A stretch of 56,230 bases of DNA, from positions 1 through 56,230 of IMG/VR virus record IMGVR_UViG_3300023443_000297; one strand, written 5' to 3'. This stretch comes from a virus. Every line of letters starts with the position of its first letter. The stretch's first letter is position 1. A model generated the notes under the pieces. It was not told the origin of the DNA. It searched no databases and saw only the letters and a program-made list of their open reading frames with translations. Shown here in pieces: positions 1 to 56,230 of this stretch. The position numbers and the translations under genes are program-made.

Positions 1-51
1 TTCCATTAGGCGGTACCCCCCTTGCTGGTTAAGGTTGTCCATAATGTCCAT
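1..51 (-). CDS. Partial duplicate: first 17 codons of the gene at 55832-56137
   Basis: This is the amino-terminal coding part of the 101-residue hypothetical protein that is complete at 55832-56137. It appears here only because the contig ends overlap, and it is not a separate gene. Confidence 0.9.
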   Translation of the reverse strand, partial: MDIMDNLNQQGGYRLME

Positions 52-144
52 TGTGCCTTAGTCCTCTATACTGGTATCGTACTGGGTGTAGGGAGTGCTA
101 GAGGTGGCAAAGGCGATGATCTCCGGGTCTACACCGCGCTCTAG
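1..144. repeat. Left copy of 144-bp terminal direct repeat
   Basis: Bases 1-144 are identical to 56087-56230. Reading frames continue across the join, and the gene starting at 56137 is cut by the left end. This is what a circular or circularly permuted genome looks like after assembly, and the unit length is then 56,086 bp. A true short terminal repeat of the packaged molecule is possible but is not needed to explain it. Confidence 0.95.
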
Positions 145-718: not shown

Positions 719-1039
719 TCATATGGTGTGGGTTAGCCAGTCCCAGATTCTTCTAAGGCCCTTCTGTTGTTTTTCTTGTTCCTTTTGTAGTTTCATCCTC
801 CAGAACAGGACATCGCGCATCAGTTCGAATTGCCGCAGTAAGTGGGTATTGCTTGGAGTCAGCCCTCTGTAATACTCTCCATCTTGGATAAATACCTCAC
901 CTCCACTGCTGCTGCAGTCCAGGATAGTGCGACCGGTGAAGTCGAACCCAGGCCTAGATCTCAGCCTGGCTATATAAACGTCTATTGATTCCTTTTCCTT
1001 TGCGAACCCTACTAGTGGCTCTTTCTCATACAATGTCAT
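719..1039 (-). CDS. Hypothetical protein (106 aa)
   Basis: No family recognised. The start overlaps the polymerase stop in a TAATG arrangement, which implies translational coupling to the polymerase gene. The C-terminal third (residues about 68-106) is strongly charged and helical, ending in a Trp-rich amphipathic segment (RRIWDWLTHTI). Such a coupled small protein could be a polymerase partner, but nothing in the sequence proves that. Confidence 0.7.
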   Translation of the reverse strand: MTLYEKEPLVGFAKEKESIDVYIARLRSRPGFDFTGRTILDCSSSGGEVFIQDGEYYRGLTPSNTHLLRQFELMRDVLFWRMKLQKEQEKQQKGLRRIWDWLTHTI

Positions 1040-4000
1040 TAGGTTAGGCTACCCCATCTCTCACCGGATTTCAGTTCCACCTTCAGCGGCACCGATAACT
1101 GCATTACGCTTTCCATTACTGGCTTTATCATCTGACCTAGAACCTCTATGTAATCACACTCTACCTCTAGAATAAGCTCATCGTGAACCTGAAGCAGGAA
1201 TCTAAACCACGGTAATTGCCCTGTGTCTCTGAGTTGGAATAGCCTATTGGTGGCGAGTTTAATAATGGCCTGTGCTCCAGATTGGATCGGCATGTTACCC
1301 GCTGCTCTCTCCCCATCACTCCTAATGCGGCGGATAGGGCAGAATAGCTCAGGCATGTACCGGCGGCGACCTACCATGTCTTGAACATACCCCGTGCGTT
1401 TGGCAAAATTGATATGGTGCTGAAGGAATTGCTTGATTTCTGGAAAGCGTTGGTCATATTCTACCAGAAGCCTAGCGCAATCATCAAGGGACCAGCCGTC
1501 AATGCCCTCCTCTATCAGGCCCTCATACAGACCAAGAGGGGTTATGCCGTAGATTATACTGAAGTTCATCCTCTTGGTGGGGTACCGGTATCTAGTCTGT
1601 TTAGCCTCTTCATATGGTATTCCAAACAGGATAGATGCGGTATAGGTGTGAATGTCCAGGTCTTCCCAGAATAACTGAATCAGGCGTTGGGATGCGGATG
1701 CGTGGGCCATTAGACGCATCTCTATTTGCGAGTTATGAGTATAGACACCACAAGTTAGGGCAAACAATGAGCTAGCATTGTCAATTTCTATATCCCATAC
1801 CGGCAGCGATCCTATAGCCTCAACAGAGACAACCTTATGGTTTAACCCGTTCTTACGCGCCTGGTCACTACACCCTATGGAGCAGAACTTCGCCTTCTTA
1901 GAGGGTGAGGCATAGAAGTCAGCTTCACAACAGAAGCAGACTAACATGGGGCCTTTTCGTTTGCCAAAGTTGGGATTATTCTCACCAACATAACTTCTGC
2001 GTTTGGATAGGGCTATCCTTAACCTTTCTAGTCGCAGGGTATGATCCTGACGCGCATAGGACTCTCGACCATCAATAGACATGTGCTCAAAATTGGGAAG
2101 GTACTCTAAGTTGTCTGGGGAGTTATTATGCTTATCTCCATCTTTGTGTTGAGTAGAGTACCCCACTGGTAAAGGACCATAAGCCCACCTAGCTACTTCG
2201 CGATGTTCATAGGTGTAATTGAAATACGATCCGGTATACAGAGTAGTATAGCCATTACCGGCATAGCTGCGCCGCAATGGCATTAGTCTATTACCAGGGG
2301 ATAACTCTGAGGCGTGTTTCAATACTCCTGTATTGAGAGGTACCCTATGGTTAGGAGTACAGGTGAACTGCTCACCGTTGCTTAATTGAACCCGAATACA
2401 CGCCCGCTCGCCAGAATAAACCTTAGCTTTAACCTCAGAGATCATCGGCCTATTGTCACGATCAACGCTGTAGATAGGATCTCCCGGCTCCAACAATTCA
2501 ATCGGCACTTCACCTAAGGGAGTATCCACCCCTGTTCCCTCAGCCAAACAGTAGTCAGGAGCAAGGAACAGATACCCAGGTGGGGCACAGAAGCCATCAC
2601 GGATGCGTCTGCCATCCTCTGACCTGACTGGCATAGCTTGTAGGTTAACCGGGTCAGATGTGGTGAGGCGACCTGTAGCTCCCCGGGTGGCGCGGATTTG
2701 ACACCGGACCCTAGGAATACCTGCTGAGTCCATAACAGCTACACGGGGGAGGACATCAGCGTAGGAGGTCTTGGCCTTGAGTATCTGCCGGTAGTTTAGG
2801 ATCTCCTGAACTAGAGGAATAACCTCATTGGTAGTGGAGTTGCGGATCTTCTTCAACTCTCTATCGTCAGTGGAGGGCAAACCCGATTCTGAGCGTTTGG
2901 TAATTGGGTGGTTTAGCTTACTGCTCCCGTACACCAGATCAGCTACCTGAACCGGGGAGTTGGGATTGAATGAGCCGTAGCCTCCAAGAATAGCACAGTC
3001 AGCAGCGGAAGTATTAAGGCGATCAGTAAACTCTGCGGATAGTTGATTAAGGTGAGGGGGATCTATAGGCATACCGACATCCATCATCTCATTGATAATA
3101 GGCAGCGTGGGAAGATCTATAGCATTGAGTACAAACCCAAGACCAGCCTCATCTATCATATGGAGTAGTTCATCACGGACCCTGATAGTGGCGTCAGCAT
3201 CTCTGCTTGAATAGTAAATAGTATCGGAGTAGGGTACTTGCTCTAGGCTGGCGTCCAGCATCAGGCCTATAACTGATTCTACTTCGGTTCGTTCTGCTGA
3301 GTTAATATCATGCCATCTGCGGTAAGCATCTGTTTCTGGTTTAGTTTCCACATCATCAAGTATCTTCCAGATTTTTCTACTGATATGATTAGGCTTCCTA
3401 TCGTGTGTGAGGATACTACCTGATTTGTTGTCCCATTTGGTCTCAGTTATGGGATCAGGCTCGGCCCAGAGTTCGCATTCCGCTGCCTGAAGATAGTCTA
3501 GAGCCTTACCCTGGCGGTACTGATGAACATAATCATCATAGGAATACATCTCCATCCCACACAGACGGAATGCCAGCTCCTTTAACCCCTGAGGTAACCC
3601 AAGCAGATAGGCTGCTACCATCGTGTCTATGAATCTGGGAATGCGAATGAATTGAGCATCGTAGAGGTAGTTGTGGACGGTTACTAAACTGGTATCAGGT
3701 ATGGCGGTTTGTGGATCTGGAATTAGATGGGCTGGGATAAACCAGGCTGTACCTGGTTCCATACTCACCTGAACTGACCAGAGCTTAGATCCGCCATCTG
3801 GCCCTGGAACAGTCTCAGTGTCCAGGGAGAACTCTGGCTGAGATAGCAAGGCAAGAGCGTGTTCGGTGCTGGTAACCTCTATGTAGTCAGGGTTGGGGTA
3901 GAGATCTGTCGGTACGAATGATAGGGGATCAGCGCCGTTGAGGATCTCCTTTAAGACTCGGAAATCATCGAAGACCATTCTCAGTTGCGGTGTAGTGTAA

Positions 4001-4536
4001 AGCCCTGCAGCAGGGTGATAGGTTGGAAATATTAGCGTGGGTGGAGCACCGTATTCCTCCTCAGCTGAATTACCGACGTACCGCCACTGTGGTATAGAAT
4101 GTGTGTGCTCTACGGTGAGGGTATCATCACCAAGGAGATAACGTATGGCTGGCTGACCCATTGCTACGATGATTTGAGGGCGAATTATATCTATTTCGAG
4201 TTGCAGCCATTTGTCAGCACAGTAGCGGGTGTCGGCTAGGGATGGTGTAGCATTGTTTCTGGGGCGGCATCGGACGCAATTGGTGATGTAGACTTCAGAT
4301 CGCAGGAGATTGAGATAGCTGAGAAGGTCATCCAGCATAATACCAGCAGCGCCGGTGAAGGGTATGCCATCCTCGTCTTCGTGCTCGCCGGGAGCCTCAC
4401 CAACGAAGAGAATGCGGGAGTTGATGGAGCCGATACCGGGTACAGGGCCAAGGCATGATTGGCGCAGATAGCAGTCAGTGCAGGATCGGACTGCTTGGTA
4501 GATGGGGAAGGTTGATGTTGAGGTTTGGGTTACCAT
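1039..4536 (-). CDS. Uracil-DNA glycosylase / 3'-5' exonuclease / family A DNA polymerase fusion, intein-containing (1165 aa)
   Basis: Replicative polymerase with four readable parts. Residues 1-200 are a family 4-type uracil-DNA glycosylase: GEAPGEHEDEDG at 46-57, likely 4Fe-4S cysteines C19, C22, C90 and C106, and the HP motif at H174. Residues about 215-460 are a DnaQ-like proofreading domain with D239/E241, N289-D293 and Y442xxxD446. Residues about 465-1165 are a PolA polymerase: motif A D661 continuing at S936 (DY/SQIEMRL), motif B R984-K988-F992-Y996-G997 and motif C QVHDE 1116-1120. An intein (663-935) interrupts motif A. The 5' nuclease domain of bacterial Pol I is absent. The gene heads an operon that reaches PurZ, dUTPase and ribonucleotide reductase, so it is a candidate DpoZ (2-aminoadenine-preferring polymerase); that preference is inferred, not visible. 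Phage SPO1 polymerase is, from memory, a precedent for a UDG-like fusion. Confidence 0.95.
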   Translation of the reverse strand: MVTQTSTSTFPIYQAVRSCTDCYLRQSCLGPVPGIGSINSRILFVGEAPGEHEDEDGIPFTGAAGIMLDDLLSYLNLLRSEVYITNCVRCRPRNNATPSLADTRYCADKWLQLEIDIIRPQIIVAMGQPAIRYLLGDDTLTVEHTHSIPQWRYVGNSAEEEYGAPPTLIFPTYHPAAGLYTTPQLRMVFDDFRVLKEILNGADPLSFVPTDLYPNPDYIEVTSTEHALALLSQPEFSLDTETVPGPDGGSKLWSVQVSMEPGTAWFIPAHLIPDPQTAIPDTSLVTVHNYLYDAQFIRIPRFIDTMVAAYLLGLPQGLKELAFRLCGMEMYSYDDYVHQYRQGKALDYLQAAECELWAEPDPITETKWDNKSGSILTHDRKPNHISRKIWKILDDVETKPETDAYRRWHDINSAERTEVESVIGLMLDASLEQVPYSDTIYYSSRDADATIRVRDELLHMIDEAGLGFVLNAIDLPTLPIINEMMDVGMPIDPPHLNQLSAEFTDRLNTSAADCAILGGYGSFNPNSPVQVADLVYGSSKLNHPITKRSESGLPSTDDRELKKIRNSTTNEVIPLVQEILNYRQILKAKTSYADVLPRVAVMDSAGIPRVRCQIRATRGATGRLTTSDPVNLQAMPVRSEDGRRIRDGFCAPPGYLFLAPDYCLAEGTGVDTPLGEVPIELLEPGDPIYSVDRDNRPMISEVKAKVYSGERACIRVQLSNGEQFTCTPNHRVPLNTGVLKHASELSPGNRLMPLRRSYAGNGYTTLYTGSYFNYTYEHREVARWAYGPLPVGYSTQHKDGDKHNNSPDNLEYLPNFEHMSIDGRESYARQDHTLRLERLRIALSKRRSYVGENNPNFGKRKGPMLVCFCCEADFYASPSKKAKFCSIGCSDQARKNGLNHKVVSVEAIGSLPVWDIEIDNASSLFALTCGVYTHNSQIEMRLMAHASASQRLIQLFWEDLDIHTYTASILFGIPYEEAKQTRYRYPTKRMNFSIIYGITPLGLYEGLIEEGIDGWSLDDCARLLVEYDQRFPEIKQFLQHHINFAKRTGYVQDMVGRRRYMPELFCPIRRIRSDGERAAGNMPIQSGAQAIIKLATNRLFQLRDTGQLPWFRFLLQVHDELILEVECDYIEVLGQMIKPVMESVMQLSVPLKVELKSGERWGSLT
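1732..2550 (-). other. Intein with HNH homing endonuclease domain inside polymerase motif A (273 aa)
   Basis: Host residues 663-935 are an intein. It begins with Cys663 (CLAEGT, block A), has a block B TxxH (T727-P-N-H730), block F (VWDIEIDNASSLFA) and ends VYTHN935 followed by Ser936 as the +1 nucleophile. Excision restores DY-SQIEMRL, the family A motif A. The middle carries an HNH-type endonuclease signature (HKDGDKHNNSPDNLEYL from H797) and a Cys cluster (CFCC, CSIGC at 867-889) typical of zinc-finger segments in such endonucleases. All splicing residues look intact. The endonuclease would target intein-free copies of the same polymerase site. Confidence 0.93.
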
Positions 4537-4908: not shown

Positions 4909-4937
4909 ATAGTAGCATACCCTTGCCTGTATGTCAA
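4909..4937 (-). promoter_or_regulatory. Sigma70-type promoter A (extended -10) with operator-like spacer
   Basis: On the minus strand the -35 is TTGACA (4937-4932), the spacer is 17 bases, and the -10 is TACTAT (4914-4909) preceded by TGC. The first part of the spacer matches the shared element TTGACA-nnYAGRCAAGGG (4937-4920). An inverted TGTCAAGG follows the -10 near 4905-4898, bracketing it. The -35 overlaps the stop codon of the ERCC4-type nuclease gene. It would drive the polymerase, PurZ and ribonucleotide reductase operon. Confidence 0.8.
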
Positions 4938-11341: not shown

Positions 11342-11378
11342 TTGATTTCTCCTTAGCTTCCCTTTCCTTGACACCTTT

Positions 11379-11407: not shown

Positions 11408-11410
11408 GGG

Positions 11411-39536: not shown

Positions 39537-39549
39537 CTTCTTACTCTAA

Positions 39550-39711: not shown

Positions 39712-39712
39712 T

Positions 39713-40341: not shown

Positions 40342-40401
40342 AGTTATCGCTCACGCCTGGAGTCCCTGGCTTCCTCTTAAAATCTTCATGCCATCTACCG
40401 C

Positions 40402-41610: not shown

Positions 41611-41612
41611 AA

Positions 41613-41771: not shown

Positions 41772-41791
41772 TAGACCTGTCTGTCTGAATC

Positions 41792-42742: not shown

Positions 42743-42743
42743 G

Positions 42744-42980: not shown

Positions 42981-43840
42981 TATACTTCCACTCCTCCACT
43001 AGCCTCAGTTATTGTATCGACGAATTCCTGTATTTCCTGGGGTTCTAAGCACATCAGGTGTTCAATGCCAGGCTGCTTGCGGTCTAAGGTGATCCCCTTC
43101 TCTATATATCTGGCACCCGCTAAGACAGCCTTTACACAGTCAGTTATGCCGGGAGAATGGGAGGTGAATCCGATGACGTACTCGGGGTAGTCCGCTTTGA
43201 GTTCAGTGATACGGTTTAGGTTTGGGTCTGTAGTAGGGTATCCGGTGGGGGTGTGGACTATGATCGGCAACTCGTCATAATACTCCCTATCAATCGGATC
43301 AAATATATCCAGCGCCATTTTAACAATCTCTAGGGCAGCGTCTAGTTCGTCCTTGCCGCCCCTGGTATCCAGCAGCACCCTGAGACCGGTATTAGCGGCT
43401 GCTGCTATTAGGTCAGTGCGGCCCATATCAGCACCGGCTACCTTAATGCCGCAGCAGTGGAATTGGTGTGAGGGGCTAGGGCCTTGACAGTTGCCTAGGG
43501 TCTTGGCTGTTGCAGGGGTGTCAGGTGTGGAGAACCAAGGTAACCCAACCTCAGAACAGTATTGGTCAATCATAACCCAGTCATGCCAGGCTAACTCCCT
43601 CTCTCTTAGCATGTCCAATATAGGGCGGCGATGCTCTCCATTGAAGTCCCTGTACGTTAGTGATCCAGTGCGGTGGTTGGCTAGGTTGCCAGCCCAGACA
43701 GTTTGGAATTTGATAGCACTCACTCTAAAATCACGGCAACATGCAGCGTCTATCATCTCCATTACCTGTTTGATATTGCCGTTATGAGTAGCACCTGCCT
43801 CTAGAACTATTATCGGGTTATTGTCTGGTAACTGCTGCAT
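42980..43840 (-). CDS. NeuB-type nonulosonate synthase, paralogue A (286 aa)
   Basis: TIM-barrel signature of the NeuB/PseI/SpsE family: EAGATHNGN at the start, KFQT, FSTPD, KVAGADM, VLLDTRGG, then GFTSHSPGITDCVKAVLAGARYIEKGIT. These condense phosphoenolpyruvate with a six-carbon amino sugar. It lacks an SAF (antifreeze-like) C-terminal domain, so it is shorter than bacterial NeuB. Catalytic His/Lys motifs appear present. Second synthase at 44229-45113. Confidence 0.88.
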   Translation of the reverse strand: MQQLPDNNPIIVLEAGATHNGNIKQVMEMIDAACCRDFRVSAIKFQTVWAGNLANHRTGSLTYRDFNGEHRRPILDMLRERELAWHDWVMIDQYCSEVGLPWFSTPDTPATAKTLGNCQGPSPSHQFHCCGIKVAGADMGRTDLIAAAANTGLRVLLDTRGGKDELDAALEIVKMALDIFDPIDREYYDELPIIVHTPTGYPTTDPNLNRITELKADYPEYVIGFTSHSPGITDCVKAVLAGARYIEKGITLDRKQPGIEHLMCLEPQEIQEFVDTITEASGGVEV

Positions 43841-43842
43841 TA

Positions 43843-44229
43843 TTAACCTCCCGTATTCTCTGGCAGTCTTTCAGTCCAGCTGCCATCCCTCCATAGTGTA
43901 ATTGGTGCTCCGTTTATATCGAAGCCGTTTCTAGACAAAAGCCTGTCATCCCACCAAGGCTCCAACCGCTTTGCTAATCCGCCGGAAATCACTTCCCCTT
44001 TGTTGTACCCATACCTAAGCCAGTCGTTGATTGAGTCAAACTCCTCTTCCTCACAGCTGGTACGCACCAGAAATGGAGCTAGATTGATACCGAGAGGAAA
44101 GTAAACTCCACCAGCATCCACAAACCTGTACCATATATACATTACCCCAGTAATCGGAACGCCAGTGTAGGCAGCACGGGCTTGTCTGGACTGTTCTCCC
44201 CAAGTTAGTGAGGGATTTATCTCACACAT
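43843..44229 (-). CDS. Hypothetical protein between the two NeuB-type synthases (128 aa)
   Basis: Unrecognised. Aromatic-rich (MYIWYRFVDAGG, EPWWDDRLLS) with a single Cys, no membrane span. It lies between paralogous synthases and overlaps the second by one base, so a role in the same sugar pathway is possible (for example the missing nucleotide-sugar hydrolase), but nothing in the sequence shows that. Confidence 0.6.
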   Translation of the reverse strand: MCEINPSLTWGEQSRQARAAYTGVPITGVMYIWYRFVDAGGVYFPLGINLAPFLVRTSCEEEEFDSINDWLRYGYNKGEVISGGLAKRLEPWWDDRLLSRNGFDINGAPITLWRDGSWTERLPENTGG

Positions 44230-45113
44230 TAGTGATAATGTCCCCCCGCTAAACGTCCAATGGGAAACTCTACTTCAATAGTATTAGTAATAGGCCAAGA
44301 ACCGGGCTCATCTACAGCCTCTGAGATCTTAACCGTATACTGCTGCATCTCTGCCTCGCTAGGTTGGACTTGCTTAACACCAGTACCCAGGGCTTGCTCT
44401 ACCTCTCGGATCATGGTAACCATCTGTTTGAATTGGCTGGGCTCTATGGCTACTCGATGGTCCGGGCCTAATCTCATCCGATCATCGGTGAAGTGCTTCT
44501 CTATAATCCTAGCACCCAAAGCAACAGCGGCTACAGGACAGGTGATCCCGGGGGTATGATCCGACAGCCCGTACATCCCGTTGTGCTGGTAATTCAGTCT
44601 AGGCATGGCCCTAAGATTGGCTTCTGATATAGGAGCAGGATAAGCTGAGGTACAATGAAGCACAGCCCAGAGCGAGTCCCCCAGTACGTCGATTGACTTA
44701 ACCACCTGATCCTGATTCATCATACCGGTACTAAGTATGGTGGGTTTAGCGGTCTGCCTGACTTGGGATAGGTACTGAAGGTCCTGGGCCTCGAAGCTGG
44801 CTATCTTGTGCGTGCTCACATAAGGATCCACAGTCATAAGTCCCCAGGCATCGTAAGCAGTACACAGGAAATCAATACCCAGGGCGTTAGCATAATCCCT
44901 AAGCACCGGTAGCCAGGAATCGGGCATTTCGTTTGCTTTGTACATGGCCCAGTATTCAGAGGCGTTTCGGCGCTCAACTAGGGAATCAGCCCTGAAGAAT
45001 TGGAATTTGACTGCACTTGCCCCTGCTTCTTTTGCTAGGTAGATCAGGTCCTTAGCTCGGTATAGGATGGAGTCGTGGTTGCTGGCTATTTCGGCGATTA
45101 TGTAGGTTTTCAT
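44229..45113 (-). CDS. NeuB-type nonulosonate synthase, paralogue B (294 aa)
   Basis: Begins MKTYIIAEIASNHDS, then AGASAVKFQFFRADSL, DFLCTAYD, STHKIASFEAQD, ILSTGMMN, and GLSDHTPGITCPVAAVALGARIIEKHFT. This matches NeuB/PseI closely, including the EKHFT motif, and also lacks the SAF domain. Start chosen at 45113 (2 bases after the upstream stop). Divergence from paralogue A suggests different substrates or a heteromer. Confidence 0.9.
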   Translation of the reverse strand: MKTYIIAEIASNHDSILYRAKDLIYLAKEAGASAVKFQFFRADSLVERRNASEYWAMYKANEMPDSWLPVLRDYANALGIDFLCTAYDAWGLMTVDPYVSTHKIASFEAQDLQYLSQVRQTAKPTILSTGMMNQDQVVKSIDVLGDSLWAVLHCTSAYPAPISEANLRAMPRLNYQHNGMYGLSDHTPGITCPVAAVALGARIIEKHFTDDRMRLGPDHRVAIEPSQFKQMVTMIREVEQALGTGVKQVQPSEAEMQQYTVKISEAVDEPGSWPITNTIEVEFPIGRLAGGHYH

Positions 45114-45114
45114 A

Positions 45115-45303
45115 TCAGGTATCGCTATCCTTATCACCGCCAAAGGTTGCTGCAATCCAAGCCAGTGTCAGTTGTAGAGTGTGCTCAGAGTTTATGTCAC
45201 CTTGGTCCATAATAGTCTGGTACATGATAGCAATAGCCTTTCCTATAAGACGGGAAGACTCTTCCATCTGCTCCAATGCTGGTAAATCTAAATTAGGCAT
45301 CAT
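45115..45303 (-). CDS. Hypothetical protein (62 aa)
   Basis: Helical, no Cys. ATG ATG at the start with GGGAG about 9 bases upstream. Its stop is 2 bases before the NeuB B start. Unrecognised. Confidence 0.6.
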   Translation of the reverse strand: MMPNLDLPALEQMEESSRLIGKAIAIMYQTIMDQGDINSEHTLQLTLAWIAATFGGDKDSDT

Positions 45304-45339
45304 TAGTTCTGACTCCCTCTTAATCTGGGGTTAGGCATC

Positions 45340-45561
45340 TCAGGCATTGGGTTTCCCTCTCAATCTTGGGTTGTGCTGGCTACAGTATTTGTTGGCAAAC
45401 TCCCTAGCCTGGGATATGACTCGAAGGAATATAAACCGTTGGAATCCGCAATCAGGGTAAGGGCAGGTGGATAAGATGTACCTACCACCACCAACGCGAC
45501 CTACTTCGCTAGCCTTCTTGATTGTATACTGAGATTCTATAGCCTCAATATCATATATCAA
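45340..45561 (-). CDS. Small zinc-binding protein (73 aa)
   Basis: CPYPDCGFQRF and CSQH form a CxxxxC...CxxH-like site. It overlaps the methyltransferase gene by 11 bases. One of several small Cys proteins alternating with sugar enzymes. Confidence 0.6.
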   Translation of the reverse strand: MIYDIEAIESQYTIKKASEVGRVGGGRYILSTCPYPDCGFQRFIFLRVISQAREFANKYCSQHNPRLRGKPNA

Positions 45562-46333
45562 TTCTCACCTCGCCCGGGCCGAATTGGACATCCATCACAC
45601 CCTGAATCCTAGCACGTTCTGCCTTCATTACCCGAGACAGAGACAGTGATAAGGATCCCGCTATGCTTATGGGTGTTGGAATATCATCAAGGTCAGCTTC
45701 AGTAAGATAGGCCATAAGGTGCCTGGCTGCTTCAGGTGTAGTCATGCCAGAGGATTCCGGTCTCAACATCCGCACTGTATCAGGATGGGAACCTGGTCTG
45801 TGAAGCTGAGCATTACGGATATCATCTACAGAGTAAGGATCTATTGTAACCCAGGCCCCGAATCCATCCACTACTATCATCTTACACCATTGCAGAGATA
45901 GCGATCCTTTTCGTATGTTAATAGCCTTGGGACCAAGATTAGATATGCAAAGGTCTACTCTTGGCCATTTATCTAGGTCATCCGGGTCTAGCCACTGCAC
46001 TTCAATTTCATTTACTCTGAATACCTCAGCGGCAAAGTCCGCTGCCCTAGAGTCTATTTCAGTAGCGAATATTCTAACAGCGCCGAGTAGGGACGCCGCA
46101 ACCGATACTATTCCGGTACCGGCACCTAGGTCGATAATGGACCTCATTTCTGAACCTGATTCGTGTTCCAGATGCAGGGCTTGCAGGGTAGACTTGGTGC
46201 TTTGATGCCATCCACCGCCATGAATACCGGGTGGGATTGGGGGCATGATTATGGGCAGTCTAGACTGGAGATGGTCTGGTATGAGGTGGATTTGATGTAG
46301 ACTGACTATAAGGAACGGGTCGAGATCTATCAT
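45551..46333 (-). CDS. PrmA-like SAM-dependent methyltransferase (260 aa)
   Basis: SAM motif I IIDLGAGTGIVSVAASLLGA (residues about 66-85), acidic loop ATEID and a motif IV-like CISNLGPK. Upstream HQSTKSTLQALHLE resembles the HxTT motif of PrmA, which methylates amino groups. In this cassette it may N-methylate or O-methylate a sugar or its carrier; a protein target is also possible. Confidence 0.8.
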   Translation of the reverse strand: MIDLDPFLIVSLHQIHLIPDHLQSRLPIIMPPIPPGIHGGGWHQSTKSTLQALHLEHESGSEMRSIIDLGAGTGIVSVAASLLGAVRIFATEIDSRAADFAAEVFRVNEIEVQWLDPDDLDKWPRVDLCISNLGPKAINIRKGSLSLQWCKMIVVDGFGAWVTIDPYSVDDIRNAQLHRPGSHPDTVRMLRPESSGMTTPEAARHLMAYLTEADLDDIPTPISIAGSLSLSLSRVMKAERARIQGVMDVQFGPGEVRIDI

Positions 46334-46542
46334 GACGGCCTCTTAATCCCACACTTAATTGATGAGCACTGGCACCTAATTCCCATTACACTCGTTATAC
46401 CACCGGATTCGTTTATAAACTCAGCCCAAGTAGGGAATCTCGGAGACCCACAAACAGAGCACCGACCGTACGAGCATTCACAATCGATATCGGTCAGGTC
46501 CACTATAGGAACGGAGTTGAGACTTTGAGTGCTGTACTGCAT
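46330..46542 (-). CDS. Small zinc-ribbon protein (70 aa)
   Basis: CECSYGRCSVCG and CQCSSIKCG give two clusters of Cys. Overlaps the methyltransferase gene by ATGA. Function unknown. Confidence 0.6.
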   Translation of the reverse strand: MQYSTQSLNSVPIVDLTDIDCECSYGRCSVCGSPRFPTWAEFINESGGITSVMGIRCQCSSIKCGIKRPS

Positions 46543-46545
46543 ACA

Positions 46546-47343
46546 TTAACCCCTAAGGTCTCCTGCCGCTACCCACTGTTGACGCCATTCACTTGACTTA
46601 GCTTCTGGGTTCTCCTCAACGGTTTGTAGCCATTCGTGCATCTTCTCACCTAGCCTCGTGCCCGCTATTTCAATAGGGTGTCCTGGTGCTCTCTCATCGA
46701 TTATCTCTAGTACAGAGCGGCCTTGAAGATTAGGTACATGGAGACCCGGGTTGAATAGGTGTTCAAGAACGAAGTCAGCTGCCTCCTCTACAGTCCACCA
46801 GAATCTTGTCATGTTAGGGTGGGTAACGGGTATTGGGATGTCTTCAAGCACACATTTATCTATTATATCAAGTAGGCTACCCCTGCTACCTAGGACGTTG
46901 CCGTAGCGGACCACACTAAGACCGGCACTTAGGAACAGACGCTCAGCTAGTGCTTTTGTCAGGCCGTAGACGTTGATCGGGTATACTGCCTTATCCGAAC
47001 TGGTGAGCACCGCCGGAGCTGAACAATCGTAGGCAGCATCGGAGACGTTCCGTGATCCTGTTACGTTAGTTTCAATGAATTCGCTGGGGTTCTGCTCACC
47101 GGTATCTACTTGCTTTAGGGCTGCTGCATGGATAACGGCATCCACACTACTAACAGCGGCTAGGACTCTTACAGAGTCTCGGACATCCCCCAACATGAAC
47201 TCAGCATCGGGGAATGCCTGGCGCTGCTGGGATTGCTTGTACTCATCACGGCTGAAGATGACTGGTGTATTACTACCGAGGAGCAGCTTGCTAGTAAGAG
47301 CATGGCCTAGAGTACCGGTGCCGCCTGTTATTAGAACTCTCAT
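46546..47343 (-). CDS. NAD(P)-dependent sugar nucleotide dehydratase/epimerase, PseB/FnlA-like (265 aa)
   Basis: Extended SDR: GGTGTLGHALTSKLL NAD loop, IHAAALKQVDTGEQNP, YGLTKALAE (YxxxK catalytic pair) and VVRYGNVLGSRGS. The AALKQVxxxExNP and TR-x-W patterns are those of inverting UDP-GlcNAc 4,6-dehydratases (PseB, FlaA1, CapE). It would open the pathway to a 4-amino-6-deoxy sugar. It is the first enzyme of the cassette in transcription order. Confidence 0.87.
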   Translation of the reverse strand: MRVLITGGTGTLGHALTSKLLLGSNTPVIFSRDEYKQSQQRQAFPDAEFMLGDVRDSVRVLAAVSSVDAVIHAAALKQVDTGEQNPSEFIETNVTGSRNVSDAAYDCSAPAVLTSSDKAVYPINVYGLTKALAERLFLSAGLSVVRYGNVLGSRGSLLDIIDKCVLEDIPIPVTHPNMTRFWWTVEEAADFVLEHLFNPGLHVPNLQGRSVLEIIDERAPGHPIEIAGTRLGEKMHEWLQTVEENPEAKSSEWRQQWVAAGDLRG

Positions 47344-50726: not shown

Positions 50727-50868
50727 AGTGGTTATCTTATTAAAGATCGGACTCCGTTGGTGGTATAGGAGCAGATGTTGTAGCTGTTGTAGGCGTAGGT
50801 ACTTATGCACTATAGGCGTGGGGCGGGATTGGCTGCAAGGGCTTGACAACTAGACAAGGGGTGTGGTA
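50727..50868. other. Noncoding region upstream of the terminase genes
   Basis: 142 bases without a gene. It holds the plus-strand promoter and a weak minus-strand promoter possibility (TTGCAG at 50838-50833, TATAGT at 50814-50809, 18-base spacer) that might serve the terminase operon. A packaging site could lie here too, but I see no repeat that marks one. Confidence 0.4.
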
Positions 50869-50872
50869 TCAT
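50843..50872 (+). promoter_or_regulatory. Plus-strand sigma70-type promoter G with operator-like element
   Basis: Plus strand -35 TTGACA (50843-50848), 18-base spacer, extended -10 TGGTATCAT (hexamer 50867-50872). Bases 50843-50860 match the operator-like motif found in promoters A, C, D, E and next to F. It is the only such element facing right. Confidence 0.72.
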
Positions 50873-51072
50873 AATGGGCCTGAATCAGTTAGCTTTGCCC
50901 GTATACCCTGCAATGTCTGAATCCCAACCTCTGAGATAAAAACACCCCTTTTATGTGCGGGGTGTTTTCCGTTGGCAATATAACTAGAACCCTTATTTTC
51001 GACCTGAGCAAGAACTCCAAGTGTTAACCAAAGCTGGCAAGCCTCCTTTTGGGTCAGAGTAACTGTTATCAT
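50869..51072 (-). CDS. Hypothetical protein (67 aa), gene contains a terminator hairpin
   Basis: MITVTLTQKEACQLWLTLGV at the start looks like ordinary coding sequence, and GAGGAG lies 9 bases before the ATG. A 10-bp hairpin with a T-run falls in codons for GKHPAHKRGVF, so part of the transcripts may end inside the gene. A plus-strand RNA from promoter G would be antisense to its second half. It is the last gene of the ribonucleotide reductase operon. Confidence 0.55.
   Translation of the reverse strand: MITVTLTQKEACQLWLTLGVLAQVENKGSSYIANGKHPAHKRGVFISEVGIQTLQGIRAKLTDSGPL
50879..50969 (+). ncRNA. Candidate antisense small RNA (about 90 nt)
   Basis: Predicted from promoter G (start near 50879) to the hairpin at 50939-50968. 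There is no plus-strand open frame with a ribosome site. It would be complementary to the 3' half of the gene at 50869-51072. Prediction only. Confidence 0.45.
50939..50968. terminator. Bidirectional Rho-independent terminator
   Basis: AAAACACCCC-ttttatgtgc-GGGGTGTTTT forms a perfect 10-bp stem. On the minus strand it is followed by TTTTTAT-type sequence; on the plus strand the stem itself ends in TTTT. It would end the polymerase/PurZ/ribonucleotide reductase transcript and any plus-strand RNA from promoter G. Confidence 0.78.
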
Positions 51073-51111
51073 GCCTTCTCACTCCTCTCATTAAGCTGTC
51101 TAGGCTGGCCA

Positions 51112-51318
51112 TTATAACCGGCTGAAGCTACTGGGTACTGGCGGGGTCTGGTTATCAAACGCTCGGACCTTACCACACTTTTTACATACACCGGGGCTCA
51201 TGCGTCTACTGTTGGACACCTCAATCAGCCAGTGATGGACGCACCTAGTAGGATCCCGGGCAGTGCCCCTGGCGGTGCTACTACTCGCAACTGGTGAATC
51301 CACACGCAAGGCAGACAT
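51112..51318 (-). CDS. Small zinc-ribbon protein (68 aa)
   Basis: CVHHWLIE and CKKCGKVRAF make a Cys/His zinc site of a type common in small phage proteins. The ATG at 51318 lies within the end of the ribonucleotide reductase gene with GGGGG upstream, so translation is coupled. Function unknown. Confidence 0.65.
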   Translation of the reverse strand: MSALRVDSPVASSSTARGTARDPTRCVHHWLIEVSNSRRMSPGVCKKCGKVRAFDNQTPPVPSSFSRL

Positions 51319-53776
51319 CGCAACCCCCTCTCTTGGTCATTACTTTTTGCGAGCACTTGGGGCATATTGCGCCAAGATTACTAGTTCCATCAAAATAGGA
51401 ATCCAAAATAGTCTTAGCCGCTTTGGGTGTTATTTCTTCCTCGTCCACGTCTACACTACCCTCCTCATTACCAAGCTCACCAGCTATAGCATAGCTCAGA
51501 GCATCATAAACCGAGGTCACTAACCGACCATCTACCCAGGCTGAATGACCACAATCGATACCCCTAAGTTGTTCAATTATGACACTGGAATCCACATCAG
51601 ATCGCAAAGCCATAGATATCAGACGGCCTACTGCTGTCGCTCCTGCTCTGACACAGGGGTTATTCTCTGCTGGAGTTAGGAATACCTCTACTGGCTGACC
51701 ATCATTTAGGCTGGTGTTAACAGTGAAGAACCAGGAGCCATGACCGGTATTGGAATGGATGGTATGGCCGGGGAGGGATCGCGGTCTGGGTTGGGGCTTG
51801 CTATGGGTATGGGTGTGGGTTTGTTGGGACTGCGACTTACTGATGTGGTCTGCAGGTTCATAGTTAGGATTCCATTGGTCCCAAGTCCGGACTGGCATAA
51901 CTGGTATAACTGGCATAACTGGCGCTGTCCAAGACTTAAACACTGGGAGATCAGATAACTCAATGGGTACATCGCCGGTGTTATGGATCTCAAAAGTCTT
52001 AAGCTCGGGCTTAGGGTTAGGTCGCCTACCGACCTCCTCAACTGAGCTAAGAGAGCTAAGGATCTGGGTCCCCTTGCTGTTGTCCCTATACACAGTGACG
52101 GCCTTACAGCCTAGATTATGTGCGAGCTTGAAAGCGTCACTGATGTCCTTTACAGTAGCAGATTCGGGTAGGTTTATGGTTTTGCTAATGCTGTTCGTAA
52201 TTCCAGATTGCCAAGCTGCCTGCATTCGGACGTGGTTCTCTGGGGATATCTGGTGAGCAGTGCGGAATAGGTTCAGTTTCTCCTTTCCGATTTGTGACTC
52301 TATCTCTCCAGGACTCATTAGATAATAGGGGCCTTCAGGCAGCATTTCCCATAGAGGTGCTGGGCATTCTATGAAGGTAGACCTATTTTCGCCATCGGAG
52401 TGCCAGATAGCCTTGCGTTCCCACATGAGAGCGTAATGGGGCTCAATACCGCTGGAGCAGCCTGCGATTATGGAGATGCTACCGGTAGGAGCGATGCAGG
52501 TGACTGAGGAATTGCGATAACCGTATTCCGCTATTACATCGGAGTTTCTTCTGAGACTGGACTCAGGCCAGTTGGGGAATGCACCCTTTTCCTTAGCCAG
52601 TGCAGCAGAGGCATCCCAGGCGGTAATGGTTATGAACTGGCTGAGAGTCTTGGCTAGGTCTAGAGCGGTATTGGAGTCATACTTGATGCCCATACGCACT
52701 AGGAGATCAGCCCAGCCCATCACACCAAGACCTATGCGACGGGTAAGTTGATTCATCTCGGAGAACCGGGCAACTGGGAATTGGTTGACATCTATCACGT
52801 TGTCTAAGAACCGGACTGCTGTATAGATATCGTCCTCTAATAGAGCATAATTAATTACAGTGTCCCCAGTAGGGACAAGGCGGTCCAAAGTAGCATAGAG
52901 GCTGAGGTTGAGGGAGCCTAGGTTACAGCTAGAGCCATCCTCTAGGAATTCCTCACCGCAGGGGTTGGAGGACTGGATAGGGCCTAGATTGGCATTGGGG
53001 GCATCTTCGTGCACCCGGTCCATGAACACCACACCAGGATCACCGGTAGCCCAGGCTGATTGACAGATGGCATCCCATATCTCTTTGGCATCTACAGTTC
53101 TCACCACATCGCCGTTCCTAGGGTTAATAAGAGATACGAATTCTCCCATTGCCCCCTTAGACAGAGTATCCATGAACTCATCGGTGATCTGCACACTGAT
53201 GTTGAAATTAGACAGGGTATCAGTTGGCTTCAGGCACTTATCCTTGCAGTGGATGAACTCCATTATGTCAGGGTGAGTGCAGTGAAGTTGAGCCATATGC
53301 GCCCCCTGTCTGATCGCACCTTGAGTAAAGGTGCTGCCTCCGACTGAGTACCAATTGAGAGTGCGTACCGGTCCACAAGCACCATCCTCATGAGGACCTA
53401 CTTTATCACCAGCTGGGCGAAGGCGAGATAGACCAAATCCTACACCACCGCCAGAAGCCTCAATTAGGGCCATCTGTGCACCTACTTTGATGATGGACTC
53501 CAGGGTATCGGTGGGTGAGTCCACGAAGCAGGCAGATAGACAGTGGGTTGAGTTGGGAACGCCAGCATGTGCTAGGGTAGGGGTATTGGGGAGGAACCGG
53601 AGGGAGGACATGAGGTTGTAGAACTTGTCCTCCCACTTATCCACCCTATTTGGAACCGTCTCAGCGCCAGCTACATGCCTAGCTACACGGCGGAACATAT
53701 CATCCGGAGTCTCACCGTGCTGTATGTAGGGGCGCTGGTAGATAACCTCAAGAGCATTACGAGTTAGCTGGACCAT
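51281..53776 (-). CDS. nrdJ: Class II (adenosylcobalamin-dependent) ribonucleotide reductase (831 aa)
   Basis: Reduces ribonucleotides to deoxyribonucleotides using vitamin B12. Key residues: C83 in LSACFV and C284 in SCNLGSLNL as the redox pair, C273 in NPCGEE as the radical Cys. IGLGVMGWADLL and a PTGSISIIAG-type loop are also present. A TSCPD-like domain lies about 690-780 and the C-terminus has CPKC...CLACGFTSC, a zinc/thiol region used to reload electrons. The N-terminal ATP cone is absent. Length is normal and no intein is present. Located after dUTPase and PurZ, it feeds dNTP supply. Confidence 0.94.
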   Translation of the reverse strand: MVQLTRNALEVIYQRPYIQHGETPDDMFRRVARHVAGAETVPNRVDKWEDKFYNLMSSLRFLPNTPTLAHAGVPNSTHCLSACFVDSPTDTLESIIKVGAQMALIEASGGGVGFGLSRLRPAGDKVGPHEDGACGPVRTLNWYSVGGSTFTQGAIRQGAHMAQLHCTHPDIMEFIHCKDKCLKPTDTLSNFNISVQITDEFMDTLSKGAMGEFVSLINPRNGDVVRTVDAKEIWDAICQSAWATGDPGVVFMDRVHEDAPNANLGPIQSSNPCGEEFLEDGSSCNLGSLNLSLYATLDRLVPTGDTVINYALLEDDIYTAVRFLDNVIDVNQFPVARFSEMNQLTRRIGLGVMGWADLLVRMGIKYDSNTALDLAKTLSQFITITAWDASAALAKEKGAFPNWPESSLRRNSDVIAEYGYRNSSVTCIAPTGSISIIAGCSSGIEPHYALMWERKAIWHSDGENRSTFIECPAPLWEMLPEGPYYLMSPGEIESQIGKEKLNLFRTAHQISPENHVRMQAAWQSGITNSISKTINLPESATVKDISDAFKLAHNLGCKAVTVYRDNSKGTQILSSLSSVEEVGRRPNPKPELKTFEIHNTGDVPIELSDLPVFKSWTAPVMPVIPVMPVRTWDQWNPNYEPADHISKSQSQQTHTHTHSKPQPRPRSLPGHTIHSNTGHGSWFFTVNTSLNDGQPVEVFLTPAENNPCVRAGATAVGRLISMALRSDVDSSVIIEQLRGIDCGHSAWVDGRLVTSVYDALSYAIAGELGNEEGSVDVDEEEITPKAAKTILDSYFDGTSNLGAICPKCSQKVMTKRGGCDVCLACGFTSCE
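51892..51918. repeat. 9-bp tandem repeat (ctggcataa, 3 copies) in the ribonucleotide reductase gene
   Basis: Three 9-base units, one with a single change, encode an MPVIPVMPV stretch in the linker before the TSCPD domain. Confidence 0.9.
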
Positions 53777-53969
53777 TAGGGTATTTTCCTCCTAGTGCGT
53801 TTAGCTTTCTTAGTATTGGTCTGGTGCTGCCCCCGATAGGCTGGTCATAGAAACTGCTGCCGCAATGGGGGCATTTATCTGGGATCTCAACTCTGCTATC
53901 CCAACAGTGACCACACCGAACACAGTGGTGATAATCGTGACAACCTGAATCAGAGTCCAGTTGAGCCAT
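53757..53969 (-). CDS. Small rubredoxin/zinc-ribbon-like protein (70 aa)
   Basis: CVRCGHCW and CPHCGSS, about 18 residues apart, form a Cx2C...Cx2C metal site like zinc ribbons. The ATG at 53969 sits inside the dUTPase end with AAGGG close upstream. Next to ribonucleotide reductase, a redox role is conceivable but unproven. Confidence 0.65.
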   Translation of the reverse strand: MAQLDSDSGCHDYHHCVRCGHCWDSRVEIPDKCPHCGSSFYDQPIGGSTRPILRKLNALGGKYPNGPANS

Positions 53970-54381
53970 AACCCTTGTCACCTCTATCGGATTGGGATAA
54001 TTTGTCCACTAGCAGAACATTGGGGGTTACCAGGGGAATAAGTACCAACTGAGCTATGCGATCCCCCACTTTGATATGAACATCCTCACCGTTTAGGTTA
54101 AGGACTGTGGCATTGACAGGTCCCCGATAACCATTATCCAAGACGCCAGTCATTACGTGCAGACCGCGAACCTGTAGAGATGAGGATCTGCCTGCTATAA
54201 GTCCCCACGTTCCAACGGGAGGCTCAATGTTAAGATTGTGCCCTATATTGACAACTATGTTAGGGGGGATAATGTAGTCCTCTGCAACATAGAGATCATA
54301 GCCACAGTCGCCTAGGTGGGACTTGGTTGGTAAGTGGAAATAGATGCCATGGTTAATCACACTGACTTTGATAGTTAACAT
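53950..54381 (-). CDS. dut: dUTPase (143 aa)
   Basis: All five trimeric dUTPase motifs are visible: GYDLYV, GRSSSL, GVLDNGYRG, KVGDRIAQLV and DRGDKGYGSTG. It hydrolyses dUTP to dUMP, keeping uracil out of DNA and making thymidylate precursor. This complements the uracil-DNA glycosylase domain of the polymerase. ATG at 54381 overlaps the PurZ stop (TAATG). Confidence 0.95.
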   Translation of the reverse strand: MLTIKVSVINHGIYFHLPTKSHLGDCGYDLYVAEDYIIPPNIVVNIGHNLNIEPPVGTWGLIAGRSSSLQVRGLHVMTGVLDNGYRGPVNATVLNLNGEDVHIKVGDRIAQLVLIPLVTPNVLLVDKLSQSDRGDKGYGSTGL

Positions 54382-55439
54382 TATAAAGCTGCTCCCACTC
54401 TGCACCGTGTAGCCAATTGCGGAGTTATTATACCAGGCCCAGTGCTAACCCATTTGATATCAATATCGCAGACCTCCTCAAGAGAATCCAATGTCTTACC
54501 GGCGAACTCTCTAATATCATCCTCGTTAGTGGAGTTCTTTAGAAATGGGTGTAGATAGTCTAAGAAGGTCAGGCAAACAAAATCAGGCCTGCATACCTTA
54601 ACCATACGGCGGATCTGGTCAGGGTCGAACTCACCGACACGCCTGACTCTGCCAGTGACTGTAGTGTATTCTTCAGGCTGGCCTATGCTACCCCAGGTGG
54701 TCTCATGTGCCATTGGACCTGAGGTACCTGCAACACGTATAGGGAAGGTTCGGACCACTGCAATTACCTGGTGATCAAGTCGGGAGGATAATCCGGCGTC
54801 ATTTAGGATCTGACCTGGGGTGACATCACGGCTGGTAGTGTACGGGTAATGTCCGGAATGAGTCAGGCTGAGATCGAAGCCTTGGGTAGACTCAATGATG
54901 ATGTCCTTACCCGAGTCGTATATGGAGTTGAGTTCATCCGAAACTGAGCCTACTTTGAAGTTGGGATTGGTAAGGTGCTGGGCTAGTTGGGCTGACCTTC
55001 TTGTGTGGTTGGCTCGGGCACTACCGATGCCCTCCTTAGTTGAGGATATAGAGGACATCATGGTTGATTTCTGTTCTTCGATTTTGTCACTGTCTTGGAT
55101 GATGATTGCAGACCGGTCAATAACTAACCTGGGAACTAACCTGGGAGGACGATCTTCTAACAAAATACTGGTCTGGGCAAGCTCATTGGTAAGAACCTTG
55201 TAATCTATCAGGGAACCAGGCCCGATGAACAGTGGGACATCAGGCAAGTGCCAAGCGCAGGGGATTTGCCGCATCTTATAGGGGATCTGGTTATAGGTCA
55301 TGGTATGTCCAGCGTTGGGTCCTCCTGTGCGAACCACTGCACCAAGAGTGCCAGAGGAATAGAGCTTGGTAGCGAGATAGGCTACGAATTCACCCTTGCC
55401 CTCAGAACCAGCTTGGCCTCCCATTACTAAGTAGATCAC
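54381..55439 (-). CDS. purZ: PurZ: N6-succino-2-amino-2'-deoxyadenylate synthase (352 aa)
   Basis: Homologue of adenylosuccinate synthetase that uses dGMP and Asp to start synthesis of the base Z (2-aminoadenine). The P-loop reads GGQAGSEGKG (7-16): Ser12 stands where PurA has its catalytic Asp (GDEGKG), the known signature of PurZ. Other conserved segments remain: GGPNAGHT (39-46, with His45), ESTQGFDLSLTHSGHYPY, TVTGRVRRVG and STGPG. The protein is shorter than cellular PurA (about 430), as in other PurZ. GTG start with AGGAGGT 6-7 bases upstream. The host PurB is normally needed to finish the reaction. Confidence 0.92.
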   Translation of the reverse strand: MIYLVMGGQAGSEGKGEFVAYLATKLYSSGTLGAVVRTGGPNAGHTMTYNQIPYKMRQIPCAWHLPDVPLFIGPGSLIDYKVLTNELAQTSILLEDRPPRLVPRLVIDRSAIIIQDSDKIEEQKSTMMSSISSTKEGIGSARANHTRRSAQLAQHLTNPNFKVGSVSDELNSIYDSGKDIIIESTQGFDLSLTHSGHYPYTTSRDVTPGQILNDAGLSSRLDHQVIAVVRTFPIRVAGTSGPMAHETTWGSIGQPEEYTTVTGRVRRVGEFDPDQIRRMVKVCRPDFVCLTFLDYLHPFLKNSTNEDDIREFAGKTLDSLEEVCDIDIKWVSTGPGIITPQLATRCRVGAAL

Positions 55440-55459
55440 CGTGTCACCTCCTGTAGTAT

Positions 55460-55519
55460 TTAGTTTATCTCAAGCTCATGCTGATCAACACCGGGCCGTT
55501 TGATTATCCTAGCTTCCAT
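55460..55519 (-). CDS. Possible 19-residue peptide
   Basis: ATG at 55519 with AAAGGTG close upstream, TAA at 55460, sequence MEARIIKRPGVDQHELEIN. It fills the space before PurZ. Too short to judge; it may only be a leader that couples translation to PurZ. Confidence 0.3.
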   Translation of the reverse strand: MEARIIKRPGVDQHELEIN

Positions 55520-55820
55520 TTCGCACCTTTTGTGCCTCTTGTGCCTCTTGCCTCAAGAGCCGGTAGTTAACGGCATCAGCGTAGTCATCATCTTCAAAGC
55601 CAAGCCATTCCTCAACACTACGGTCATCATGTATGTACTTGATAGTACCTTTCACCATGTTCTGTGCCAGCCTCAGTGCGAATTGCTCTATCAACCTAAG
55701 CTTAGGTTGGAGCCGGTCGTATTCATCATCTGTTAGGCCGAGACCGGATGCAGTTATGAGGACACGGAAGTTCTCGCTATCGCAAGCCTCGCTTAATCTG
55801 GATTCCCAATCCTTGGTCAT
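55509..55820 (-). CDS. Hypothetical acidic helical protein (103 aa)
   Basis: Mostly helical (LRLIEQFALRLAQNMVKGTI), with EAQEAQ from two 9-base repeats near its end. No MazG-type ExxE pattern or HD motif, so I do not call it MazZ or DatZ, though its place beside PurZ would fit such a helper. Unrecognised. Confidence 0.65.
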   Translation of the reverse strand: MTKDWESRLSEACDSENFRVLITASGLGLTDDEYDRLQPKLRLIEQFALRLAQNMVKGTIKYIHDDRSVEEWLGFEDDDYADAVNYRLLRQEAQEAQKVRNGS

Positions 55821-55831
55821 GCCTTCCCCCT

Positions 55832-56137
55832 TTAGGTTATCTTCTCACCGTCCATGATCTCCTGAAGGTCCTTAAGAACATCGAATTCATAGATGAATTG
55901 AAGAGTAGACGCTATGCCAGATATCATACCAAAAACGGCATCAGGACACCTATCGTACTCTTCGGCCTCTACTAACAATTTAGGTATGTAAACCCTAAGA
56001 GCCTCATACAAATGCTCATTGGGCGTATACCCATGCTGCTGGCCCCCTTCAGTTGCGTGTTTCATTAGATCGGCTACTGTTCTAGTTTCCATTAGGCGGT
56101 ACCCCCCTTGCTGGTTAAGGTTGTCCATAATGTCCAT
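55832..56137 (-). CDS. Hypothetical helical protein spanning the contig join (101 aa)
   Basis: No family recognised. AAGG precedes the ATG at 56137; a second ATG at 56128 is also possible. Predicted helical with a hydrophobic middle (AVFGMISGIASTLQFIYEF) that is probably amphipathic core, not membrane. Its first 17 codons also appear at 1-51. Confidence 0.7.
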   Translation of the reverse strand: MDIMDNLNQQGGYRLMETRTVADLMKHATEGGQQHGYTPNEHLYEALRVYIPKLLVEAEEYDRCPDAVFGMISGIASTLQFIYEFDVLKDLQEIMDGEKIT

Positions 56138-56230
56138 TGTGCCTTAGTCCTCTATACTGGTATCGTACTGGGTGTAGGGAGTGCTAGAGGTGGCAAAGGC
56201 GATGATCTCCGGGTCTACACCGCGCTCTAG
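56087..56230. repeat. Right copy of 144-bp terminal direct repeat
   Basis: Identical to 1-144; marks where the circular genome was opened. Confidence 0.95.
56144..56230 (-). CDS. Partial duplicate: last 29 codons of the gene at 58-432
   Basis: C-terminal coding part of the 124-residue hypothetical protein; the complete copy is at the left end. Present only because the contig ends overlap. Confidence 0.9.
   Translation of the reverse strand, partial: LERGVDPEIIAFATSSTPYTQYDTSIED

What the first reader, a model, noticed from the sequence alone, without database searches (positions are those of the whole stretch)
54381..55439. PurZ signature implies a 2-aminoadenine (Z) genome
The P-loop GGQAGSEGKG has Ser12 in place of the PurA catalytic Asp, the change that marks PurZ enzymes of Z-DNA phages, while His45 and the nucleotide-binding segments remain. 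Co-transcription with a family A polymerase, dUTPase and ribonucleotide reductase fits a DNA-building role rather than host AMP synthesis.
Basis: partly seen in the sequence, partly recalled or inferred. Interest (0 to 1): 0.9.

Follow-up and report, generated by a model that had tools for sequence, protein, structure and literature searches.

The report
Divergent PurZ–DutZ pair in uncultured phage
An uncultured virus of bacteria carries a deeply divergent version of the enzyme pair that known viruses use to replace the DNA letter A with 2-aminoadenine (Z), so its DNA probably contains Z; but the serine 'signature' that suggested this also occurs in many ordinary bacteria and is not proof by itself.

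Summary
ORF 54381-55439(-) is a 352-aa adenylosuccinate-synthetase homologue with GGQAGSEGKG, Ser12 instead of Asp, and His45. It also has PurZ-type Ser133 and Thr259 and the PurZ/PurZ0-type insertion after Val236. It groups with Ser-type PurZ/PurZ0 proteins, apart from ordinary PurA (100/99), but forms its own deep branch there. It scores 237 bits against NCBIfam PurZ (cut-off 300). Its donor pocket (Asp294) is of the PurZ0/PurA type.

The stronger evidence is next door. The 'dUTPase' is DutZ-like: its best phage matches are Duts of PurZ phages, and it has RSS instead of RSG in motif 2. DutZ hydrolyses dATP and dGTP in characterised PurZ0 phages. A 144-bp terminal repeat shows the genome is complete; on the circle the family A polymerase lies about 1.7 kb upstream of purZ. 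That polymerase (UDG-exonuclease-PolA with an intein) is outside both DpoZ clades, so Z selectivity is not predicted. DatZ, MazZ, DmtZ and PurB were not found.

The inference 'Ser12 therefore Z genome' is unsafe: bacterial chromosomes in many phyla encode Ser-type homologues beside normal PurA. A Z-containing genome remains likely, resting on PurZ plus DutZ.

The parts
54381..55439 (-). purZ-like gene, 352 aa, Ser-type adenylosuccinate synthetase homologue
   Evidence: AlphaFold model pLDDT 87, best PDB matches 5k7x (archaeal PurA), 7vf6 (PurZ0), 6fko (phiVC8 PurZ)
55392..55421 (-). P-loop GGQAGSEGKG (residues 7-16) with Ser12
55041..55043 (-). Ser133 (= S-2L Ser131; Thr in PurA), nucleotide pocket
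   Evidence: pocket residues from PMC8342488
54711..54731 (-). PurZ/PurZ0-type insertion AGTSGPM after Val236 (the loop that pushes Val against the ribose 2'-OH in PurZ)
   Evidence: alignment; PMC8342488
54663..54665 (-). Thr259 (= S-2L Thr273; Gly in PurA), aspartate loop
54558..54560 (-). Asp294 (= S-2L Gln308): PurZ0/PurA-type donor pocket, probably GTP rather than ATP
   Evidence: PMC8342488; inference
53950..54405 (-). dutZ-like gene (dUTPase fold), overlapping the end of purZ; likely ATG start at 54381
54178..54192 (-). DutZ-type motif 2 GRSSS (RSG in ordinary dUTPases)
53757..53981 (-). 74-aa Cys-rich (zinc-ribbon-like) protein, overlaps dutZ and RNR
51281..53776 (-). ribonucleotide reductase (barrel, N-terminal and TSCPD domains), supplies deoxynucleotides
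1039..4536 (-). DNA polymerase: family-4 UDG domain, 3'-5' exonuclease domain, PolA domain with intein; not DpoZ-1 or DpoZ-2
1732..2550 (-). 273-residue HNH intein inserted in polymerase motif A (APDY | intein | SQIEMR)
3991..4440 (-). family-4 uracil-DNA glycosylase domain fused to the polymerase
4909..4937 (-). sigma-70-like promoter TTGACA-17-TACTAT upstream of the polymerase block; inside a 46-bp repeat also present at 11363-11408
   Evidence: consensus match only
1..144 (.). direct terminal repeat, identical to 56087-56230; shows a complete, circularly assembled genome
56087..56230 (.). second copy of the direct terminal repeat

Best explanation
The gene encodes a divergent PurZ (PurZ0-grade) enzyme that works with the DutZ-like diphosphatase beside it to make 2-aminoadenine nucleotides for the phage's own DNA. 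Proposed steps: (1) the phage RNR raises dNTP supply; (2) DutZ cleaves dATP to dAMP, removing A, and dGTP to dGMP, feeding PurZ; (3) PurZ joins dGMP and aspartate, probably using GTP, to give succino-2-aminodeoxyadenylate (dSMP); (4) host PurB and host kinases turn dSMP into dZMP and dZTP; (5) the phage's UDG-PolA polymerase copies DNA from a dATP-poor, dZTP-rich pool, so Z replaces most or all A without needing a Z-selective polymerase, as described for S-2L with its PrimPol. Shown here by sequence: the fold, the PurZ-specific residues and loop, the DutZ motif and kinship, the gene order, and the failure of DpoZ membership. Inferred from characterised relatives: steps 2-4. Inference only: step 5 and the presence of Z in virion DNA.
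For: PurZ residues Ser12, Ser133, Thr259, Val236 and the insertion loop. Ser-type clade apart from Asp-type PurA at 100/99. PurZ is its best NCBIfam model, 237 bits against 159 for purA. The adjacent Dut: best matches among 1016 phage records with a dUTPase are Duts of PurZ phages (108 bits); the one that looked like an exception, Streptomyces phage Keanu, proved to carry a PurA-like gene and PurB. RSS in motif 2, shared by 57 of 58 Duts found at viral purZ loci and absent from 7 of 7 controls. dut follows purZ on the same strand within 2.5 kb in 57 of 76 viral loci. DutZ of Ghobes and Wayne hydrolyses dATP and dGTP, and all 98 PurZ0 genomes in that study have dutZ (PMC12884076). Complete genome with polymerase, purZ, dut and RNR in one same-strand block. 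Klenow polymerase does not discriminate A from Z, and S-2L uses an unselective PrimPol (PMC8342488, PMC8599892).
Against: Below the curated PurZ cut-off (237 of 300). Its branch is unresolved: AU p = 0.51 with PurZ, 0.27 with PurZ0, 0.27 with PurA, 0.058 with the bacterial Ser-type clade. Bacterial Ser-type proteins share the same key residues. The polymerase is not DpoZ. No DatZ, MazZ, DmtZ or PurB found. The phage also encodes a DPPY-type adenine-methylase-like enzyme (11411-12664), which is odd if A is absent, although Z keeps the N6 amino group.
Confidence: 0.6

Rival explanations
1. PurZ and DutZ work, but the unselective polymerase and incomplete dATP removal give a mixed A/Z genome instead of full replacement.
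For: The polymerase lies outside DpoZ-1 and DpoZ-2 and keeps the helix-O Tyr. DatZ and MazZ are absent. The predicted adenine-type methylase would still have substrate. E. coli expressing the S-2L Z-cluster reached only about 12-23% Z in plasmid DNA (PMC8342488).
Against: Many PurZ-bearing viral contigs have polymerases with Tyr in helix O, so Phe is not general; S-2L replaces all A with an unselective polymerase.
Confidence: 0.2
2. The enzyme is a Ser-type PurA paralogue of the kind seen on bacterial chromosomes, making an amino-purine nucleotide for another purpose, such as counter-defence or pool manipulation; the phage DNA is ordinary.
For: A bacterial and archaeal Ser-type family shares the key residues and sits in operons with nucleotide-handling genes. 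The window protein scores about the same on the PurZ model as a bacterial member (237 and 233 bits).
Against: Grouping the window with the bacterial clade is nearly rejected (AU p 0.058). Its partner is a DutZ-type Dut, not the DCD-like or DUF7002 partners of the bacterial operons. It lies in the phage replication block.
Confidence: 0.13
3. Ordinary AMP-pathway PurA captured from a host, with Ser12 a neutral or inactivating change.
For: The AU test does not reject placing the window beside PurA (p 0.27). The closest fold by E-value is an archaeal PurA, 5k7x.
Against: Ser133, Thr259 and the PurZ insertion loop are all present. PurZ and the archaeal PurA model score far above bacterial purA. A dedicated DutZ partner is present.
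Confidence: 0.05

Closest known systems
PurZ0 phages (Gordonia Ghobes/Sapo/Archimedes, Arthrobacter Wayne, Microbacterium Goodman, Curtobacterium Parvaparticeps)
   Same: PurZ0-like residues and loop, Asp in the donor pocket, DutZ close downstream on the same strand, family A polymerase upstream
   Different: About 35-38% identity at best; window PurZ lies outside the PurZ0 clade (100/100); polymerase is not DpoZ-1; no DmtZ or PurB found
PurZ phages (phiVC8, S-2L, SH-Ab 15497, ZP6)
   Same: Ser at the PurA Asp position, insertion loop, TSRDVT-like segment
   Different: Gln/Asn donor pocket in PurZ, Asp in the window; PurZ phages use DatZ and MazZ, absent here; window outside the PurZ clade (100/99)
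Chromosomal Ser-type PurA homologues of bacteria and archaea (this study)
   Same: Same key active-site residues
   Different: Different operon partners (DCD-like, RNase H/kinase protein, DUF7002, YfbR-like); additional to normal PurA; separate clade (97/84)
Bacterial Pol I and UDG-PolA phage polymerases (SPO1-like)
   Same: Polymerase domain 38% identical to bacterial Pol I; a UDG-fused PolA also occurs at PurZ loci L034, L069, L071, L084 and L096
   Different: An HNH intein splits motif A

Membership tests
PurZ/PurZ0 (2-aminoadenylosuccinate synthetases) | Ser in place of PurA catalytic Asp13 | tested here: met
   Ser12
PurZ/PurZ0 (2-aminoadenylosuccinate synthetases) | PurZ-specific pocket: Ser131 and Thr273 (S-2L numbering) and insertion after the conserved Val | tested here: met
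   Ser133, Thr259, Val236-AGTSGPM; bacterial Ser-type proteins share these features too
PurZ/PurZ0 (2-aminoadenylosuccinate synthetases) | NCBIfam NF038379 amino_Aden_PurZ curated cut-off, 300 bits | tested here: not met
   236.9 bits, yet the best-scoring model; Ghobes 346, phiVC8 397
PurZ/PurZ0 (2-aminoadenylosuccinate synthetases) | Placement inside the PurZ or PurZ0 clade | tested here: inconclusive
   Own deep branch in the Ser-type clade; AU p 0.51 (PurZ) and 0.27 (PurZ0)
PurZ/PurZ0 (2-aminoadenylosuccinate synthetases) | Makes dSMP from dGMP and aspartate | not testable with these tools
   needs purified enzyme
DutZ (dATP/dGTP diphosphatase of PurZ0 phages) | dUTPase fold grouping with Duts of purZ loci rather than ordinary Duts | tested here: met
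   Inside a starred group (95) of 41 rows: window, 34 purZ-locus Duts, 4 DutZ references, and Keanu and BpsS140, which also carry purZ-like genes; quick tree, SH-aLRT only
DutZ (dATP/dGTP diphosphatase of PurZ0 phages) | RSS in motif 2 (a feature found here, not from the literature) | tested here: met
   GRSSS
DutZ (dATP/dGTP diphosphatase of PurZ0 phages) | Hydrolyses dATP and dGTP | not testable with these tools
   needs purified enzyme
DpoZ (Z-selective family A polymerase) | NCBIfam DpoZ_1 (cut-off 500) or DpoZ_2 (cut-off 350) | tested here: not met
   72 and 45 bits
DpoZ (Z-selective family A polymerase) | Phe instead of Tyr in helix O, shared by both characterised clades (PMC8599892) | tested here: not met
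   NFSIIYG
Z-DNA phage | 2-aminoadenine in virion DNA | not testable with these tools
   needs LC-MS or restriction tests

The most novel reading that the evidence does not exclude
A separate, previously unsampled solution to Z-DNA: a deep-branching PurZ plus DutZ alone, working with a bacterial Pol I-like, UDG-fused, intein-bearing polymerase with no Z selectivity, so that A is excluded by nucleotide-pool control rather than by a DpoZ, in a phage lineage distant from the known Z phages.
Probability: 0.45. Interest if true: 0.6.

Novelty: new variant of a known kind. Interest (0 to 1): 0.48.

Why it matters
If true, Z-DNA metabolism extends to a phage lineage whose PurZ branches outside both known subgroups and whose polymerase is not a DpoZ, supporting the idea that pool control (PurZ plus DutZ) can suffice. 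The work also shows that the Ser-for-Asp signature is no safe marker of Z phages, because a broad bacterial and archaeal family shares it, and it offers a better two-gene marker: purZ followed by a Dut with RSS in motif 2.

Tried and rejected
Single-protein scans of viral contigs with the window PurZ, polymerase and portal found no close relatives, so the lineage is unsampled there; the RNR scan gave three distant relatives, in which a motif search found no PurZ. Searches for DatZ, MazZ, DmtZ and PurB in the window found nothing significant. I first took Keanu's Dut as a counterexample to the DutZ grouping; its genome proved to hold a PurA-like gene. I first took Tyr in helix O as evidence against Z; many purZ-bearing contigs also have Tyr, so it is neutral. 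The fold search cannot separate PurZ from archaeal PurA. The AU test against the 11-row viral clade did not finish. PADLOC found no named system for the bacterial Ser-type operons, and paper searches found none described.

Full report
What is there. The P-loop reads GGQAGSEGKG, with Ser12 where PurA has its catalytic Asp, and His45 is kept. The closest annotated phage proteins are only about 35-38% identical: Gordonia, Microbacterium, Arthrobacter and Curtobacterium PurZ0 proteins.

The genome is complete. The window's first and last 144 bases are identical, so the contig closes into 56,086 bp. This matters because on the linear window purZ and the polymerase lie at opposite ends. On the circle the polymerase stop is about 1.7 kb upstream of the purZ start, on the same strand, with small ORFs between. 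A 10/12 sigma-70-like promoter at 4937-4909(-), inside a 46-bp repeat, lies upstream of the polymerase block. The consensus scan found no minus-strand terminator-like site in 50800-56230 and one weak one inside the polymerase gene. Co-transcription is plausible but inferred.

Active site. Using the S-2L pocket described in PMC8342488, the window has the substrate-contacting features that separate PurZ from PurA: Ser12 (S-2L Ser23), Ser133 (Ser131) and Thr259 (Thr273). It also has the insertion after the conserved Val (AGTSGPM). At the donor pocket it has Asp294, like PurZ0 and PurA, where PurZ has Gln or Asn. I infer GTP as donor. PMC12884076 states the donor preferences of PurZ0 and PurZ the other way round from what these residues suggest, so this should be assayed.

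Phylogeny. In a 67-row careful tree, Ser-type proteins separate from Asp-type PurA at 100/99. Inside are PurZ (11 rows, 100/99), PurZ0 (16 rows, 100/100), an IMG/VR-only viral clade (11 rows, 99/99) and a bacterial/archaeal clade (21 rows, 97/84). The window falls in none of them and forms its own long branch. AU tests leave it free: with PurZ p 0.51, with PurZ0 0.27, with PurA 0.27, with the bacterial clade 0.058. NCBIfam's PurZ model is its best hit but below cut-off (236.9 of 300). The AlphaFold model (pLDDT 87) matches archaeal PurA 5k7x, PurZ0 7vf6 and PurZ 6fko, so fold alone does not decide.

The neighbour is DutZ-like. PMC12884076 showed that 'dUTPases' of PurZ0 phages hydrolyse dATP and dGTP and that all 98 PurZ0 genomes studied carry one. 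Among 1016 phage records with a dUTPase, the window's best matches are Duts of PurZ phages. In a quick tree it lies in a group (95) of purZ-locus Duts, apart from ordinary Duts. Motif 2 reads RSS instead of RSG in 57 of 58 Duts found at viral purZ loci and in the PurZ-phage references; all 7 controls have RSG or KSG; the window has GRSSS. Caveats: the loci were found through PurZ and their Duts by similarity to the window's Dut, and the controls are few. dut lies on the same strand within 2.5 kb downstream of purZ in 57 of 76 viral loci.

The polymerase is not a DpoZ. It is a family-4 UDG plus exonuclease plus PolA protein with a 273-residue HNH intein in motif A. Its polymerase domain is 38% identical to a bacterial Pol I and lies outside both DpoZ clades. 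It fails both DpoZ models and keeps Tyr in helix O, where both characterised DpoZ clades have Phe (PMC8599892). Many purZ-bearing viral contigs also have Tyr, so this does not count against Z. It removes polymerase selectivity from the argument.

The signature is not specific. A scan of genome contigs with a PurZ0-type alignment gave 335 relatives; the 80 kept all have Ser at the key position and lie mostly on bacterial chromosomes across many phyla, with some archaea. Eleven of twelve such genomes tested also encode normal PurA. Short forms (about 345 aa) mostly sit between an HHH/RNase H/kinase-like protein and a DCD-like protein. Long forms (about 540 aa) are fused to an N-terminal P-loop domain and are followed by DUF7002, often with a YfbR-like HD protein nearby. 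Their function is unknown to me; PADLOC and paper searches found nothing.

Verdict. PurZ chemistry is likely; a Z-containing genome is likely because of PurZ plus DutZ, not because of Ser12 alone; full replacement of A and polymerase selectivity are not shown.

Noticed in passing
L103-L182 (80 loci from genome contigs): A broad bacterial/archaeal family of Ser-type PurA homologues in conserved operons: short form with an RNase H/kinase-like protein and a DCD-like protein; long form fused to a P-loop domain with DUF7002, M78-Macro and YfbR-like neighbours. Its parts resemble phage Z-clusters; possibly a bacterial amino-purine nucleotide or defence system.
   Followed up: partly
L019, L021, L022, L027, L031-L035, L054, L074: A clade of IMG/VR PurZ proteins outside PurZ and PurZ0 (99/99), many followed directly by a DutZ-type gene.
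   Followed up: partly
Duts at viral purZ loci: RSS instead of RSG in dUTPase motif 2 marks DutZ-type proteins and could serve as a search signature.
   Followed up: partly
1039-4536 (-); also L034, L069, L071, L084, L096: Family-4 UDG fused to a family A polymerase recurs at PurZ loci; in the window it also carries an HNH intein in motif A.
   Followed up: partly
11411-12664 (-): DPPY-type beta-class DNA methyltransferase resembling CcrM-type adenine methylases, odd for a genome that may lack A unless it methylates Z.
   Followed up: no
38859-47343 (-): Cluster of sugar genes: two NeuB-like synthases (42980-43840 by Pfam; 44229-45155 by inspection), a cytidylyltransferase, class-III aminotransferase, Gfo/Idh oxidoreductase and an NAD-epimerase-like protein; may make a nonulosonic-acid-type sugar.
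   Followed up: no
4893-4938 and 11363-11408: A 46-bp repeat (80% identical) with TTGACA-type promoter sequence on the minus strand and palindromic TTGACA/TGTCAA ends; a candidate promoter-operator pair.
   Followed up: no
19074-19936 (-): Two adjacent genes of similar size (143 and 141 aa) share duplicated segments (77% identical, spacing 431 bases), a probable tandem duplication.
   Followed up: no
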